Of a stretch of 64,000 bases of DNA, positions 28,631 through 38,897 are shown in pieces (positions within the stretch are counted from its first letter, which is position 1; each line of letters starts with the position of its first letter). Both the position numbers and the translations under genes were made by a program. Location: positions 1,054,001-1,118,000 of the forward strand of contig NZ_AP022834.1 of NCBI RefSeq assembly GCF_013394385.1, given 5' to 3'. This DNA comes from Kocuria sp. TGY1127_2 (GTDB taxonomy: Bacteria > Actinomycetota > Actinomycetes > Actinomycetales > Micrococcaceae). The notes beneath the pieces were generated by a model, which made no database searches, had not been told where the DNA came from, and worked only from the letters and a program-made list of their open reading frames with translations.

Positions 28631-30211
28631 ATGACGCTCGCGGAACCTCTACTTAAAACCGGCGAATTCGGTCCGGGCGACTCAGAGTGGTTGCACCTTT
28701 TGGTCGGGGATTGGCAAATGATCGCCGATCTCGCACAAGGTGACCTTGTGCTGTGGTTCCCTGAAGAATTTCAATCGAGTGAGCGGAGCGGAAAAGGGCA
28801 AGGCGGTCCCGCTCCGCAAGCCGGATTCTCCGGGATGGCTCACGTTCGGCCCTCGACAACGCAAACCGTCTTCCATCGAGACATGGTGGGGCTTCGAATG
28901 AGCTCGCAGGTGGAGACGGCCGCGCGCATTTGTTGGTACGACCAGGCGACTCAGTTCTTGGACAGGGTCGACTGGAATGCGGAGTCGACGATGCGCGTGG
29001 TTCTGTACCCTCTCGTCAGAAACGGACGAACAGTAGCCGTCCTGTCGTTGCACCACGGCGAACAATCAGGTCGGATGCAGGGAAGACTCGACACTGTCTT
29101 CCGTGAAACCGCACGAGAGATCCTCAGTATGGTGGCCCGTGGGGCGTGGCCGGACTTCAGCTCGTCGAATGAGACTTCGCGCGGCAACCCGAGGGTCAGC
29201 GATGGCGTTATCCGTTTGGACGCCGAAGGTCGTGTCACTTTTGCATCTCCCAATGCTGTATCGGTCTACCGGCGACTCGGATTCGCGGACGCGTTGACCG
29301 GGAACCTTCTGGCCGATCTGACTCGGGACCTTCTCCCCGCCGCCGAGAAAGCGGACGAGACTCTCCCGCTCGTTCTCACTGGACGTATGCCCTGGAGGGG
29401 CGAGGTCAGCACGTCCAAGGTCAGCATCACGTTCAGGGCAGTCCCCTTGAGACGCCAGACGCGACGTGGGGAGGAGCGGTTCGGGGCGTTGCTCCTCTGC
29501 CGTGACGTGACGGAATTGCGCCGTCGCGAATTGGAATTAATGACCAAGGACGCGACGATCCGAGAAATTCACCACCGAGTCAAAAACAATTTGCAGACTG
29601 TATCAGCATTGTTGCGCCTGCAAGCCCGGCGAATGACTTCCTCCGAGGGGAAACTGGGATTGGAGCAGGCCATGCGTCGTGTGGCCACGATCGCCATGGT
29701 GCATGAGGCCCTGTCGCAGGGGCTGACGCAGAACGTTGATTTTGACGACCTGATTAATCGCCAGTTCCATCTTGCGGCTGAGGTGGCTTCCCCAGGACAG
29801 GCGGTTTCAACCGAAATGACGGGCGAGTTCGGCCAGCTTCCCAGTGAACTGGCCACGCCGCTAGCCTTGATCATCAACGAAATCGTGGCCAACGCTGTTG
29901 AGCACGGACTCGATGGGCATTCCGGGACCGTTACGCTCGATGGGCGTCGAGTGGATGCTGCGGATGGTGGGCAAGAACTCATCGTGACGGTGGGGGACGA
30001 CGGCATCGGGATGGGGGACAGCTACATCGAGGAATCGGGCGTCTCCGCCTACCGGCCTCCTTCCGAGGGAGAGGGCCTTGGAATGCAGATCGTTCGGACC
30101 CTCGTCGCCAGTGAGCTCAAGGGGTCCATAGTCTGGCGTCCGCGTAACGGTGGCGGAACGGAAGTGGTCATCACCGCACAAATTCCCGAGCGGGCAGCTG
30201 ACCGGTCATAG
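28631..30211 (+). CDS. pdtaS: Sensor histidine kinase, PdtaS-like (HisKA_2)
   Basis: A 526-residue soluble kinase with no membrane helices. An N-terminal GAF-like domain (about 1-170) and PAS domain (about 190-300) precede the HisKA_2 helix REIHHRVKNNLQTVSALL, with phosphoacceptor His at 314/315, and a C-terminal ATPase domain (NEIVANAVEHG, DDGIGMG, EGLGMQIV). The M. tuberculosis homologue senses ligands such as c-di-GMP or metals and phosphorylates the antiterminator PdtaR, which is not in this window. ATG at 28631 follows AAGGATGAT. It is convergent with whiB1, as in M. tuberculosis (Rv3220c/Rv3219 region). Confidence 0.93.
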   Translation: MTLAEPLLKTGEFGPGDSEWLHLLVGDWQMIADLAQGDLVLWFPEEFQSSERSGKGQGGPAPQAGFSGMAHVRPSTTQTVFHRDMVGLRMSSQVETAARICWYDQATQFLDRVDWNAESTMRVVLYPLVRNGRTVAVLSLHHGEQSGRMQGRLDTVFRETAREILSMVARGAWPDFSSSNETSRGNPRVSDGVIRLDAEGRVTFASPNAVSVYRRLGFADALTGNLLADLTRDLLPAAEKADETLPLVLTGRMPWRGEVSTSKVSITFRAVPLRRQTRRGEERFGALLLCRDVTELRRRELELMTKDATIREIHHRVKNNLQTVSALLRLQARRMTSSEGKLGLEQAMRRVATIAMVHEALSQGLTQNVDFDDLINRQFHLAAEVASPGQAVSTEMTGEFGQLPSELATPLALIINEIVANAVEHGLDGHSGTVTLDGRRVDAADGGQELIVTVGDDGIGMGDSYIEESGVSAYRPPSEGEGLGMQIVRTLVASELKGSIVWRPRNGGGTEVVITAQIPERAADRS

Positions 30212-30325: not shown

Positions 30326-30574
30326 CTAGGACGCGCGGCGGGCGCGTGCGGCGCGGCGTTTCATCGCGCGTCGCTCGTCCTCGCTCATTCCTCCCCAGAC
30401 ACCGGAGTCTTGGCCGGTTTCCATGGCCCACTGCAAGCAGGTGTCCATGACGGTGCAGCTTCGGCAGACGGCTTTGGCCTCCTCAATTTGAAGGAGGGCC
30501 GGACCGGTATTTCCAACCGGGAAGAAAAGCTCAGGGTCCTTTTCGAGACAGGCTGCGCGACTGCGCCAATCCAT
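30326..30574 (-). CDS. whiB1: WhiB1-type iron-sulfur transcription factor
   Basis: An 82-residue Wbl protein. The four cysteines binding the NO-sensitive [4Fe-4S] cluster are Cys9, Cys37, Cys40 and Cys46 (C-x27-C-x2-C-x5-C), followed by the GVWGG turn and a basic tail (RRAMKRRAARARR) that contacts DNA. WhiB1 binds the primary sigma factor region 4 and is essential in mycobacteria. Start ATG at 30574 with AAGGAG upstream. A hairpin lies in its 5' region (near 30655-30676). Confidence 0.96.
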   Translation of the reverse strand: MDWRSRAACLEKDPELFFPVGNTGPALLQIEEAKAVCRSCTVMDTCLQWAMETGQDSGVWGGMSEDERRAMKRRAARARRAS

Positions 30575-30872: not shown

Positions 30873-31316
30873 ATGACTGACTCTCGATCGGAAGAAGCAC
30901 GCTTGGAGAATGAGCCTCGGGTGAGTCCTTCCCGCCCCGTTTTCGTCTTGGCAGGTCTTGTCGGCCTCGAGGGTCTCTGTCTTGTCGGAGCAGGAATTTT
31001 TCAAACGGTCGAAGTCTTCTTCCAGGACCACGCCATGCCTTTCGGCGCCATCGTCATTATGTCCCTTCTGTACATCGGTTATGGCCTGTGGCTAATAGGA
31101 GCAGCACGGAGCACCGTCAAGGGCAGTCTGTGGCCGCGGGCTCTCATATTGTTGACCCAGATCTTTCTGATTGTCATCGCACTTCAGATGGCATCCGCGT
31201 GGGGCTGGTTACTCGTGGCCGTTCCCGTCCTGTACGGAGTACTTGTCGGTGTGCTGTTGTTCAGCGCCGCTGTCCAGAACCATCTTCTGCGAGCGAACGG
31301 ACTCCGCGAGAGATAG
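30873..31316 (+). CDS. Small four-helix membrane protein
   Basis: A 147-residue protein with a charged cytosolic N-terminus (about 22 residues) and four hydrophobic helices (about 23-44, 55-76, 84-104 and 108-132). No domain name is recognised; similar short integral membrane proteins sit near whiB1 in other Micrococcales. ATG 30873 is followed by typical codon use. Its last 108 bases overlap the 3' end of the convergent FtsK-like gene, so both coding ends need confirmation. Confidence 0.75.
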   Translation: MTDSRSEEARLENEPRVSPSRPVFVLAGLVGLEGLCLVGAGIFQTVEVFFQDHAMPFGAIVIMSLLYIGYGLWLIGAARSTVKGSLWPRALILLTQIFLIVIALQMASAWGWLLVAVPVLYGVLVGVLLFSAAVQNHLLRANGLRER

Positions 31317-34300
31317 CTCCGCTTCGGCGTGACGCGGTCTCCGAGAGCTTCTAGCCATACGGGGGATCTTGAAGCGCTCCCACGTCCCATGTGACAGGAC
31401 CAATCCTTCGTCTTCATCGAGGCGGAGTTTGTAGGGAGGCGTTGGCTCAGGCCGAAACCCGCACGAACCATTCTGGATCGGGCCCGCGAAAATCGCGCTC
31501 GTCGAGGAGCGTATCGATTCGGCCCATCGGCAGGTGATCGTCGCCGGTGATCCCATGGGAAAAGTGAGAATCGCCAAACGGTGGGAATGAACGATCTCAT
31601 CGACCCGATCCATCTCGGCAAGAGGCCAGCTCGGCACGTCTCGGACAACGGCCACGTTTGAGCCTGAGCCTGCGGGGGTATGTTCCAGCACCTGACCCAG
31701 CCCAGACGCCATTGGATTGTTTCCCGCCTCGAAGATTCGCCAGCCCAGATGTGGGTTAAAATTCGTCAGTACGTCCAGGAGCTGTTCTTCAGTGGTGCGT
31801 GACGCGTAGACCAACGCAAGTGCTTCTCCGGGGACGGCCAGCGCGCGACATTCCTTCGGCAGAGGCGAGCTTACGCCTACCAGGAGCTCGATTCCGGGCT
31901 TTTGCCCCGGGCCAGCTGGATACGGCTCTGGGTCGGTCACTCGAACCCTCGATCCGCGATGGTCTGGCAGGCACCACGTCAATTTCGGCCGCGGCCTCCT
32001 CATCATCGGTAAATTCACGACAGGTGCGATCGGTCGCCGTTTTGTCGAATCGCTCTCCTGTTTCGCCCGGACCAGATCGGTGAGGTCCCTGGTTGCATTC
32101 CGCGAAGGCGGAAGCAGTCCCAAGGGTCCCCGGTTCCGGGTCATCGTTCCTTCGCAGATCCACAGGTCGTCGAGCAGTTCGGCGGATTCGCGTGGGTGAG
32201 AAAGACGAAATTCATTGGAATCCGAATCTTGGGCAAAGATTTTGGCGGGGCAGTATTGTCGGATGTCGGGCGGAAGTCTTTTGCCCCCGAGAAGCGCGAG
32301 ATTCCAGTGGGCGCCGTGAGCAACGACCAAATCCTGAATGTTCTTCGCGAGGTCGTAGCCGAAAGCCACGAAGCTCTCGAGGAGCCTGTCGGTGCCCTGA
32401 ACGATCACTAGGACAGGATTCGAAGGGCTGCTCCGTGGCGTGCGAATGAGTTCGGTGAGGACTTCTACAACGAAGAGCGGGTCCGCCAGATCGGCCGCGC
32501 CACGAATATCCAGACCTGCCGTCGACGCCTTAGTGATCGTAAGGTGAAGTTCCGGATCGCATGAGATTGCGTAGATCGGCTGATTCGCCGTTGCCGCTGA
32601 CATCAAGAGTCTTGTTGCAAAACTAAGCTGACGCTGAACAGGTCCGACGACTTCGAGCGCGCCGAGTTCTCGACCCGTCCACAGCACAGGGCCTTGCCTA
32701 GCACGTCGGGGGATTTCGCCGTGGCCCAGGTACAGGCCGGGAGAGTGAACTGTAGCCATACTGCCAGCCACCATGTGCGGATCCGAGAATCGGGAAATCC
32801 GATTGTCCAGGCGCGGAGGTATGACCGGAGCCGTGGAACCCGATTCGATCATCCGAACCCGTTCCGTGAATTCGGCGATATGTTCGCCGAGAATCGAGTC
32901 TGTCGAAGCGGACGTCTTGCCCGTTCGGCCAGAACCCACTTCCTGGTGTGATGACCGTGGGATCCTCAAAGGCTTGAGCGGTGGGGTCCTGGGAAGAGCA
33001 TCCACATGAATGGCGTGAAAATGCAGGACCGCGCCGGCAACGCTCACGTATCCCGTGCCTGGGCTAGTCGCCGGAAGTTCTGCTGCTTGGGGAGTGCCGA
33101 TCACGCCGACGGGTTCGGGTTCGGAGGCGACGCGGAAACAGACGTTTACCGATACGTTCGCCCGAATATCGGAAGAAATTGCGCCTTGTGGCCGTTGGGT
33201 GGACATGACGAGGTGGATTCCGAGTGATCGGCCTGCCGCCGCTATGTGCATGAGCCTGTCCATGGCAGTGGGGAATGTGTCGACCAGGATTCTGAACTCG
33301 TCGACGGCGACCAGGATTTCCGGTAGCGGGCACCGCTTCGTGCCGGAATCACCACGGAACCCTTTGGTGTATTCCGGCCACGAGTGTGCTTTGACGTCCG
33401 CGAAGAGCGATTCCCTGCGGCGAATTTCCGCCTCGATGAAGGCCAAGCCTCGGAGGATGACAGGTTCGTCCAGATCGGAGAGAGCCGAGTGGACATGCGG
33501 CAAACGAGCTACAGGTCCGAAGCTGGTACCGCCCTTGAAGTCGATGAGGATGAACCCAATACGGTCCGGCGGATACCGCAGAGCCAAGGAAGTGAGAATT
33601 CCTCGCAAGAATTCTGATTTCCCTGATCCGGTGGTCCCGGCAACCACGCAATGTGGGCCGATTTCATTCAAGTCGTAGCTCAAGAGCTTTCCGCTTTTGG
33701 CGTCTTTCCCGAAATCAACCATGAGCGCTGCATCCTTTCGCGACAGTGACCAGCGGTCCGAAGCAGTCTCGATGGCGAGGTCTTCCCGAGTGGACAGCCG
33801 GCAGGAGGTCACGGACCGGTTGACGGGTACCAGAGAACGATTGACGTGGACCAATATCTCCAAGAGGTCCAGCGGTGGAATATCCGGTGCAGAGCACGTC
33901 AGTCCGACTCCGCTCACCGCCCCTATGCAGCCGTCCTTCGCCGTGCCTTCGGGCCTGATCACGAGTCCGTCGGGGGATGGGCTGACCAGAATCCCGTCCC
34001 ACGCGGCAGGCGGAGAGAGGCGAGGAGAGTCCAATCCGATGAAAACGATCATGCCTGGACCGTTCTCCAGCGTGAATCGGTTCGCGCATACCAGCGAAAC
34101 GGGAGGATTCGAGAGCGACGGAGCACTGTCGTCCGAGAAATTCACGAGCTGTCCCCACCGTCGTGAAAACTCTCGACAGATGTCGCAGTCTGCAGGACAA
34201 GCGGCCCATTCAAGGGGTAGACCGTCCACCAGCAAATGGGCAAGCAACGTAGCCATGCCGTCGTCGCGACCGTCCGTGCTCATCAGCAGGAGATGGGGGA

Positions 34301-35309
34301 CCCGAAGGCTCGTCAACACAGGCATGTTCTGCGCCGTATAGGTCGGACTCGAAAACCTATCCGAAATATGAAGAGCGCGAGGGCCTCGCCCCCACCTGAC
34401 CCACAGCTCTTGTGCAGACGTCTCATGGGGACGTCGTCCACGCGGCGATGGAGGACTTCTGCTCCACTCCGTAGAAGACTCGAGTCGAACAACGACCTCA
34501 GCAATTCGGGCTCCGATGGGAGGTACGAGGCGTGCGATGGAATTGAGCTCGCGGGAACGGGCTTCTGCGAACAGTTTTCGATCACGGCCCTTGCCTCGGC
34601 CCTTGGCCCACCAGTGGGCCAAGGTCACAATCGAACTCAAGCATCCGAAGAGGAGCATGAACCACATGTTCCAGACCAATGCGGTCACCACGCCGAACAG
34701 GATCGGCACGAGGCTGGTGAACAGCAAGATTTTCCGACCCTCCGAATCGCTGGCGAAGCGGAGATCTTGTGCGGGCAAGGGAAGGTGCGACACGGACAGG
34801 GGACGTTTTGTTGTCCAGTCCTCAAGCTCGAGGCGTGACCCGTTGACAGTAATGATCTCACCGCATGCGAGCTTGGTCACAGGTTTCTGATCGGCTGGAC
34901 GGAAGACGGCATGTTGATCAGTGACGTTCAGCGTGGCCGCGAAAGGAGGTAGATGCGGGTTGCTCAAAGAAATATCCGTGAGGTCCCGCCCCATGGTGAA
35001 ACTACCCCTCCTGACCGGGAAGTTGGTTCCGGCTGCGAAACCCTCGGTGCAGGTGATTCTGAAGGGCGCTGGCTCAGCTGGCGGGGACGAACCCTCTGAA
35101 GCGCGAATCATGGCTCCCTCGACGAACGGTGGGGATCCGAACTTCGCTTGATGAAGTGGGATACCTCCTACATGCCACGTTGTTTGACGGCCGATGTGCT
35201 CGTTGAGGAGGTCTTCGATGAGTGCCCCCTGCGTTCCGACAGAGGCTGAGATCCTCATCGAAAACCCTCGTGAAACCGTTGGATCAAAAATCGAAATATT
35301 GAGCTCCAT
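31209..35309 (-). CDS. EssC-like FtsK/SpoIIIE ATPase with FHA-like N-terminus
   Basis: A protein of about 1366 residues. In order: a ubiquitin-like/FHA-type N-terminus (GRDLTDISLSNPHLPPFAA near 108-126), two close membrane helices (about 193-235), a degenerate region, and one FtsK/SpoIIIE ATPase with intact Walker A VVAGTTGSGKS (about 555-565), Walker B ILIDFKGG (about 587-594), a second acidic strand ILVAVDEF (about 665-672) and STQRP. A downstream ATPase-like domain keeps LVIVQGTDRL but has no Walker A. This is the layout of type VII secretion ATPases (EssC/EccC). No WXG100, EccB/D/E or mycosin gene lies in the window. ATG at 35309 is chosen; the frame extends to a TTG at 35369. Confidence 0.85.
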   Translation of the reverse strand: MELNISIFDPTVSRGFSMRISASVGTQGALIEDLLNEHIGRQTTWHVGGIPLHQAKFGSPPFVEGAMIRASEGSSPPAEPAPFRITCTEGFAAGTNFPVRRGSFTMGRDLTDISLSNPHLPPFAATLNVTDQHAVFRPADQKPVTKLACGEIITVNGSRLELEDWTTKRPLSVSHLPLPAQDLRFASDSEGRKILLFTSLVPILFGVVTALVWNMWFMLLFGCLSSIVTLAHWWAKGRGKGRDRKLFAEARSRELNSIARLVPPIGARIAEVVVRLESSTEWSRSPPSPRGRRPHETSAQELWVRWGRGPRALHISDRFSSPTYTAQNMPVLTSLRVPHLLLMSTDGRDDGMATLLAHLLVDGLPLEWAACPADCDICREFSRRWGQLVNFSDDSAPSLSNPPVSLVCANRFTLENGPGMIVFIGLDSPRLSPPAAWDGILVSPSPDGLVIRPEGTAKDGCIGAVSGVGLTCSAPDIPPLDLLEILVHVNRSLVPVNRSVTSCRLSTREDLAIETASDRWSLSRKDAALMVDFGKDAKSGKLLSYDLNEIGPHCVVAGTTGSGKSEFLRGILTSLALRYPPDRIGFILIDFKGGTSFGPVARLPHVHSALSDLDEPVILRGLAFIEAEIRRRESLFADVKAHSWPEYTKGFRGDSGTKRCPLPEILVAVDEFRILVDTFPTAMDRLMHIAAAGRSLGIHLVMSTQRPQGAISSDIRANVSVNVCFRVASEPEPVGVIGTPQAAELPATSPGTGYVSVAGAVLHFHAIHVDALPRTPPLKPLRIPRSSHQEVGSGRTGKTSASTDSILGEHIAEFTERVRMIESGSTAPVIPPRLDNRISRFSDPHMVAGSMATVHSPGLYLGHGEIPRRARQGPVLWTGRELGALEVVGPVQRQLSFATRLLMSAATANQPIYAISCDPELHLTITKASTAGLDIRGAADLADPLFVVEVLTELIRTPRSSPSNPVLVIVQGTDRLLESFVAFGYDLAKNIQDLVVAHGAHWNLALLGGKRLPPDIRQYCPAKIFAQDSDSNEFRLSHPRESAELLDDLWICEGTMTRNRGPLGLLPPSRNATRDLTDLVRAKQESDSTKRRPIAPVVNLPMMRRPRPKLTWCLPDHRGSRVRVTDPEPYPAGPGQKPGIELLVGVSSPLPKECRALAVPGEALALVYASRTTEEQLLDVLTNFNPHLGWRIFEAGNNPMASGLGQVLEHTPAGSGSNVAVVRDVPSWPLAEMDRVDEIVHSHRLAILTFPMGSPATITCRWAESIRSSTSAIFAGPIQNGSCGFRPEPTPPYKLRLDEDEGLVLSHGTWERFKIPRMARSSRRPRHAEAELSLAESVRSQKMVLDSGAEQQHTDKYSVQDGNGHE

Positions 35310-38897
<3,588 letters not shown>

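What the first reader, a model, noticed from the sequence alone, without database searches (positions are those of the whole stretch)
31209..35309. Orphan EssC-like ATPase with one intact motor domain
FHA-like N-terminus, two membrane helices and tandem FtsK-type domains match type VII secretion ATPases. The window has no WXG100 substrate, EccB/D/E or mycosin gene. Only the first ATPase keeps a Walker A. It may serve a minimal secretion system with distant substrates or an unrelated membrane pump function.
Basis: partly seen in the sequence, partly recalled or inferred. Interest (0 to 1): 0.6.

Follow-up and report, generated by a model that had tools for sequence, protein, structure and literature searches.

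The report
Dispersed minimal type VII secretion pair
The gene is a membrane ATPase of a stripped-down type VII protein-secretion system in a Rothia-like bacterium: its only recognisable partner, a small WXG100 protein, lies 1.3 million bases away, and the two genes disappear together whenever a relative loses the system.

Summary
31209-35309 (-) encodes a 1366-aa EssC/EccC-lineage ATPase, not a chromosomal FtsK: Foldseek's best match to the C-terminal half is T. curvata EccC, and the genome has a separate FtsK. Only D1 keeps Walker A/B. D2 is dead across the family; D3 is dead in this sublineage and a few others. Yet it is not an orphan. The genome carries exactly one WXG100 gene, 1.27 Mb away, beside a response regulator/histidine kinase pair, with the WxG turn and a YxxxE export signal. 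Both loci are syntenic across Micrococcaceae. In 197 family genomes, all five without a T7SS-type ATPase also lack WXG100, and 188 of the other 192 have one. Counting genus members, the ATPase was deleted at its syntenic site at least six times, each time with the WXG100 gene also gone. The N-terminal domain is not an FHA but a predicted ubiquitin-like (YukD/EccD-like) fold fused to a single FHA, which may explain why no separate EsaB/EccD gene is found. Best reading: a dispersed, minimal type VII system exporting one WXG100 homodimer, outside the published T7SSa-j scheme. Secretion itself is untested, and EccB/EccE/mycosin/EssB/EsaA were not searched genome-wide.

The parts
31209..35309 (-). 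Solo T7SS ATPase gene (1366 aa + stop); ubiquitin-like - FHA - 2TM - D0 - D1 - D2 - D3
35085..35309 (-). Residues 1-75: predicted beta-grasp / ubiquitin-like (YukD/EccD-N-like) domain
   Evidence: AF2 secondary structure bb-a-b-b, mostly pLDDT 78-94; profile chain to YukD/EccD
34806..35075 (-). Residues 79-168: single FHA domain; GR kept but the S..H of the phosphothreonine site lost in this lineage
   Evidence: Foldseek/VIA hits to FHA domains, Z about 12; alignment
34605..34739 (-). Residues 191-235: two transmembrane helices
   Evidence: hydropathy, AF2 helices 189-213 and 217-261
33783..34601 (-). Residues 237-509: stalk and D0 (DUF) region
   Evidence: with the second TM helix it matches EccC of ESX-5/ESX-3 cryo-EM structures, VIA Z 10-11
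32970..33782 (-). D1 motor domain, the only one with Walker A and B
33615..33638 (-). D1 Walker A GTTGSGKS (residues 558-565)
33294..33317 (-). D1 Walker B ILVAVDEF (residues 665-672)
32100..32759 (-). D2, degenerate, no Walker A in any solo-type orthologue aligned
31320..32042 (-). D3, degenerate; P-loop site reads VYASRTTEEQLLDVL (other genera often keep GxxGSGKT..LLIDD)
30873..31316 (+). Small membrane protein gene, convergent and overlapping the ATPase 3' end; syntenic neighbour that stays when the ATPase is lost, so probably not a dedicated partner
30326..30574 (-). WhiB-family gene, syntenic marker
28631..30211 (+). PdtaS-like histidine kinase, syntenic marker
35606..36874 (+). glf (UDP-galactopyranose mutase), divergent syntenic neighbour

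Best explanation
It is the motor of a dispersed, minimal type VII secretion system. A membrane-anchored EssC/EccC-type ATPase with a fused ubiquitin-like domain and one FHA domain recognises the C-terminal YxxxE signal of a single WXG100 protein encoded 1.27 Mb away next to a response regulator/histidine kinase pair, and exports it, presumably as a homodimer, using ATP hydrolysis in D1 alone. D2 and D3 are inactive copies that probably serve as oligomerisation and substrate-docking platforms. Shown: lineage, domain architecture, synteny of both loci, paired loss. Inferred: physical interaction, signal recognition, homodimer, export, D1-only driving, regulation by the two-component system, and that no further dedicated subunits exist.
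For: Lineage: D1 groups with other Micrococcaceae solo ATPases (core clade 98/95) among T7SS ATPases; chromosomal FtsK is far outside. Fold: C-terminal model 501-1366 matches T. curvata EccC cytoplasmic domain, Foldseek E 1.4e-34, VIA Z 34.1, 660 residues aligned over three ATPase domains (model pLDDT 70); TM-D0 matches ESX-3/ESX-5 EccC. Partner: exactly one WXG100 gene in the genome, above the WXG100_ESAT6 cut-off; 15 invariant columns among 16 family members, including W43/G45 and Y83xxxE87; in RR-HK-WXG100 synteny across the family. Functional link: family 197 genomes, ATPase-/WXG- 5, ATPase+/WXG+ 188, ATPase+/WXG- 4, ATPase-/WXG+ 0 (Fisher p 5e-8); genus members G204 and G211 lack both. 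Eight genomes lack the ATPase between intact glf and small-membrane-protein/WhiB/PdtaS genes, at least six independent events (Fitch), and none has the solo WXG100; G144 keeps an N-terminal stub of the ATPase there. Loss is not genome shrinkage (G204 3.0 Mb, G211 3.3 Mb). No YukD/EccD gene in own genome. Purifying selection.
Against: No experiment. Seven genomes (G080, G146, G001, G020, G048, G092, G172) keep the solo WXG100 without this ATPase; all show an EccC-type ATPase signature (G146 confirmed as EccC plus EccD; G146, G080, G001 and G020 copies cluster in the tree), so the WXG100 is not exclusive to it. Four genomes have a T7SS-type ATPase but no WXG100 hit (two assemblies 71% and 93% complete; G097 and G114 hold only a T7SSd-like ATPase); G216 (87% complete) and G104 (WXG100 split over two frames) are further exceptions. 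Six losses is a modest number, and the 2x2 test ignores phylogeny. In S. aureus EssC, D2 Walker motifs are needed for assembly and D3 for secretion (PMC9436818), so a D1-only motor must work somewhat differently. Whether the RR-HK locus is intact in the loss genomes was not checked.
Confidence: 0.75

Rival explanations
1. The machine is a full T7SS whose other subunits (a membrane partner, an envelope conduit such as TsdI/EsaA, a kinase) are scattered in the genome and were not recognised.
For: Every characterised T7SS needs further membrane components (PMC11217815, PMC9436818); T7SSd-like loci of relatives L047/L210 carry linked kinase and large secreted proteins. EccB, EccE, mycosin, EssB, EsaA and TsdI were not searched genome-wide.
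Against: The one genome-wide partner search done, YukD/EccD, was empty in own genome. No conserved dedicated neighbour at either locus; the adjacent small membrane protein is retained when the ATPase is lost.
Confidence: 0.35
2. The WXG100 is mainly an intracellular effector or regulator of the ATPase or of the adjacent two-component system, not a secreted protein.
For: Conserved adjacency to RR-HK; D2 and D3 dead; FHA phosphothreonine site degraded in this lineage.
Against: Invariant YxxxE export signal and WxG; TM-anchored motor with EccC fold; WXG100 kept where a true EccC/EccD system replaces the ATPase.
Confidence: 0.15
3. It is an FtsK/SpoIIIE-like DNA translocase or conjugation coupling ATPase.
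For: D1 alone superposes on FtsK and TcpA motor domains.
Against: FtsK is a separate gene on a very long branch; three-domain EccC match, FHA and ubiquitin-like N-terminus, no FtsK gamma or 4TM domain hit; joint loss with WXG100.
Confidence: 0.03
4. A decaying remnant of an old T7SS with no present function.
For: Dead D2 and D3, repeated losses, a stub in G144.
Against: T7SS-type ATPase present in 192 of 197 family genomes, with the solo type syntenic in the many genera sampled; purifying selection in every domain; D1 motifs nearly invariant.
Confidence: 0.07

Closest known systems
T7SSd of Actinomycetota (TsdA/C/D/H/I; Garrett, Higginson and Palmer 2024, PMC11217815)
   Same: FHA-bearing EssC-type ATPase plus a WXG100 protein; no separate EsaB gene
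   Different: ATPase and WXG100 unlinked, no linked kinase, TsdH or TsdI; distinct ATPase clade with dead D2 in all members aligned; predicted ubiquitin-like domain fused to the ATPase
T7SSb EssC/YukB of Bacillota
   Same: TM-D0-D1-D2-D3 order, FHA domain, single WXG100
   Different: EssC has two FHA domains and active D1 and D2 (PMC9436818); linked essA/essB/esaA and a separate EsaB; here ubiquitin-like plus one FHA, D1 only
T7SSa / ESX EccC
   Same: Cytoplasmic three-ATPase architecture and YxxxE-type substrate signal
   Different: EccC lacks FHA; needs EccB/D/E and mycosin and usually an EsxA/EsxB pair; EccD absent here
Chromosomal FtsK/SpoIIIE
   Same: D1 is an FtsK-type RecA motor
   Different: Separate gene in this genome, no gamma or 4TM domain hit, very distant in the D1 tree

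Membership tests
Type VII secretion system (any) | FtsK/SpoIIIE-family ATPase of the EccC/EssC lineage | tested here: met
Type VII secretion system (any) | WXG100 protein encoded in the genome | tested here: met
   one gene, C1:2383438, over cut-off
Type VII secretion system (any) | ATPase and WXG100 functionally linked | tested here: met
   joint presence and at least six paired losses; genetic inference only
Type VII secretion system (any) | ATPase-dependent export of the WXG100 protein | not testable with these tools
   needs a knock-out and secretome
T7SSa (ESX) | EccD integral membrane protein with YukD domain | tested here: not met
   PF08817 no hit in own genome; G080 and G146 hit as positive controls
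T7SSa (ESX) | EccB, EccE and mycosin genes | not tested
   The genome search cap reached
T7SSb | Separate EsaB/YukD gene | tested here: not met
   PF08817 no hit in own genome, while the control search finds B. subtilis
T7SSb | Two N-terminal FHA domains on EssC | tested here: not met
   one FHA (79-168); residues 1-75 predicted ubiquitin-like
T7SSb | EsaA, EssA, EssB | not tested
   The genome search cap reached; not searched for at the ATPase locus either beyond the syntenic markers
T7SSd | Gene cluster with WXG100, kinase TsdD, TsdH and TsdI beside the ATPase | tested here: not met
   ATPase flanked by glf and small-membrane/WhiB/PdtaS genes in the window and most genera sampled
T7SSd | ATPase in the TsdC clade | tested here: inconclusive
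   linked, T7SSd-like ATPases of the same family fall outside the solo clade in the D1 tree; published TsdC references were not placed in it
Chromosomal FtsK | FtsK clade with gamma and 4TM domains | tested here: not met

The most novel reading that the evidence does not exclude
A two-gene type VII secretion system: one ATPase with a fused EsaB-like ubiquitin domain and a single active motor, plus one WXG100 homodimer, is the entire dedicated machine, with no separate channel, pseudokinase or protease subunit, conserved as near-core equipment of Micrococcaceae under a two-component regulator.
Probability: 0.4. Interest if true: 0.78.

Novelty: new variant of a known kind. Interest (0 to 1): 0.62.

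Why it matters
If right, this is the smallest type VII system known, spread over Arthrobacter, Rothia and relatives, and missed by surveys that look for gene clusters. It would make two open questions testable in simple hosts: what the irreducible T7SS translocon is, and whether D1 alone can power export while D2/D3 only dock substrate. The fused ubiquitin-like domain offers an explanation for the reported absence of EsaB in T7SSd and ties EsaB function to the ATPase N-terminus. A WXG100 gene standing alone beside a two-component system in an actinobacterial family also contradicts the 2014 statement that all actinobacterial WXG100 genes come in EsxB-EsxA pairs (PMC3935865).

Tried and rejected
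Chromosomal FtsK identity: rejected. The adjacent small membrane protein as partner: disfavoured, because it stays when the ATPase and WXG100 are gone. GSGRTGKT at residue 792 as a second Walker A: rejected, linker position and not conserved in the alignments. The separate-YukD hypothesis: no PF08817 hit in own genome. Direct profile comparison of the solo-family N-terminus with YukD/EccD was weak (best 61 columns, E 0.03, probability 2%); the ubiquitin-like call rests on the AF2 topology and on the chain solo to T7SSd-like N-termini (E 6e-6) to YukD+EccD (E 3e-5, score 30.9 against at most 9.8 in 100 column-shuffled controls). Neither Foldseek nor VIA listed a ubiquitin fold for residues 1-75, as FHA matches filled the list. 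No paper found in the held library describes this pair in Micrococcaceae.

Full report
What is there. The minus-strand ORF 31209-35309 encodes a 1366-aa protein with a conserved ATG at 35309. Pfam finds one FtsK_SpoIIIE domain; NCBIfam's best models are EssC and EccC, matched in D1 and below the whole-protein cut-offs. phmmer against the PDB puts T. curvata EccC, ESX-5 EccC5 and B. subtilis YukB first. An AlphaFold2 model of residues 501-1366 (mean pLDDT 70, D1 about 90) is best matched by the EccC cytoplasmic domain over all three ATPase domains (Foldseek E 1.4e-34; VIA Z 34.1, 660 residues). The N-terminal model shows a single FHA domain at 79-168, two TM helices, and a region matching the TM-stalk-D0 of ESX-3/ESX-5 EccC.

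Motor domains. D1 carries Walker A (558) and Walker B (669). Among the ORFs scanned, all but three (L042 and L043 GTTGAGKS, L051 GTTGCGKS) have GTTGSGKS in D1. D2 lacks a Walker A in every solo-type orthologue aligned; D3 keeps GxxGSGKT plus LLIDD in many genera but lost it in the window's Rothia sublineage and a few others. A D1 profile hits D2 as well in most other T7SS ATPases but never in the solo type. All domains evolve under purifying selection, so the dead domains are probably structural. In S. aureus EssC, D1 and D2 are the canonical ATPases and D2 is needed for assembly (PMC9436818), so this is a real departure.

N-terminal domain. Residues 1-75 have the order b-b-a-b-b with mostly high confidence, unlike FHA. 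Directly, the solo family's profile matches YukD/EccD only weakly. N-termini of T7SSd-like actinobacterial ATPases match it (E 6e-6) and match YukD plus EccD N-termini (E 3e-5, score 30.9; 100 column-shuffled controls at most 9.8; YukD against EccD itself scores 30.1). I read it as a fused EsaB/YukD-like domain; this is likely, not proven.

Where it lives. The window is G000:C1:1054001-1118000 of a 3.0-Mb genome. Its genus includes Rothia aerolata: contig NZ_BMDC01000001.1 has the same length as G059 contig 1. The ATPase sits between glf/galactofuranosyltransferase/ABC genes and a small-membrane-protein/WhiB/PdtaS block; this order is conserved in many genera, and ATPase-smem-WhiB-PdtaS recurs in Georgenia outside the family. 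192 of 197 family genomes have a T7SS-type ATPase; not all of these are the solo type, since T7SSd-like and EccC types occur as well.

The missing partner. The genome has one WXG100 gene, at C1:2383438, 1.27 Mb away (TIGR03930 over cut-off). It is 96 aa, with invariant WxG and a C-terminal YxxxE, the T7SS signal type (established knowledge), and sits after an OmpR-type regulator and HAMP kinase (MtrAB-like scores below cut-off). This RR-HK-WXG100 order is syntenic in all the solo-WXG100 loci examined.

Functional link. Family: no T7SS-type ATPase and no WXG100 in 5; ATPase and WXG100 in 188; ATPase only in 4; WXG100 only in 0 (Fisher p 5e-8, ignoring phylogeny). Of the 4, two are incomplete assemblies (71%, 93%) and two (G097, G114) hold only a T7SSd-like ATPase. 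Genus: two genomes lack both. G132 lacks the solo ATPase and the solo WXG100 and keeps only a linked T7SSd-like pair. At the syntenic site of eight loss genomes, glf and the small-membrane-protein/WhiB/PdtaS genes are intact and the ATPase is gone; G144 keeps a stub. On a tree of the flanking genes these are at least six independent events, and none of the eight has the solo WXG100. Genomes that keep the WXG100 without the solo ATPase (G080, G146, G001, G020, G048, G092, G172) show EccC-type ATPase signatures, confirmed as EccC with EccD in G146. So the WXG100 seems to need some T7SS ATPase, solo or EccC.

Mechanism proposed. ATPase hexamer in the membrane; YxxxE tail of the WXG100 homodimer docks on the inactive C-terminal domains; D1 hydrolysis drives export; ubiquitin-like and FHA domains gate the ring in place of EsaB/EccD and EssB. 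Only lineage, anatomy, synteny and paired loss are shown; the rest is inference from T7SSa/b.

Novelty. Garrett et al. 2024 define T7SSc-j from gene clusters; their only new actinobacterial type, T7SSd, has five linked components and no ubiquitin-like protein. The solo pair fits none of T7SSa, b or d on tested features, and no paper found in the held library reports it. It is a new variant of a known kind.

Limits. Secretion untested; only YukD/EccD was searched genome-wide among other T7SS parts; solo-type classification of all 192 ATPases was not done one by one; whether the RR-HK locus is intact in the loss genomes was not checked.

Noticed in passing
L047 (G195), L210 (G172), L048/L172 (G132): Second, T7SSd-like loci in some members of the family, with linked WXG100 and, in L047 and L210, a Ser/Thr kinase and a roughly 1000-aa secreted protein; a possible extension of T7SSd beyond the Olsenella and Bifidobacterium named in its description.
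   Followed up: partly
L144:6384-15200: Single 2939-aa ORF in an uncultured bacterium with seven D1-like FtsK domains by profile search.
   Followed up: no
G104:C1:889254-889537: Solo WXG100 split over two reading frames in a one-contig genome that keeps the full ATPase: frameshift or sequencing error.
   Followed up: no
L173, L174, L179, L191 (G003, G014, G179, G119): Shorter solo-type ATPases (about 1060 aa) that match the family profile only to position 1037 and apparently lack D3, not beside WhiB/small-membrane genes within the 20 kb read.
   Followed up: partly
L199:7380-7670 (G144): N-terminal stub of the ATPase between glf and the small membrane protein gene: a decaying copy.
   Followed up: yes
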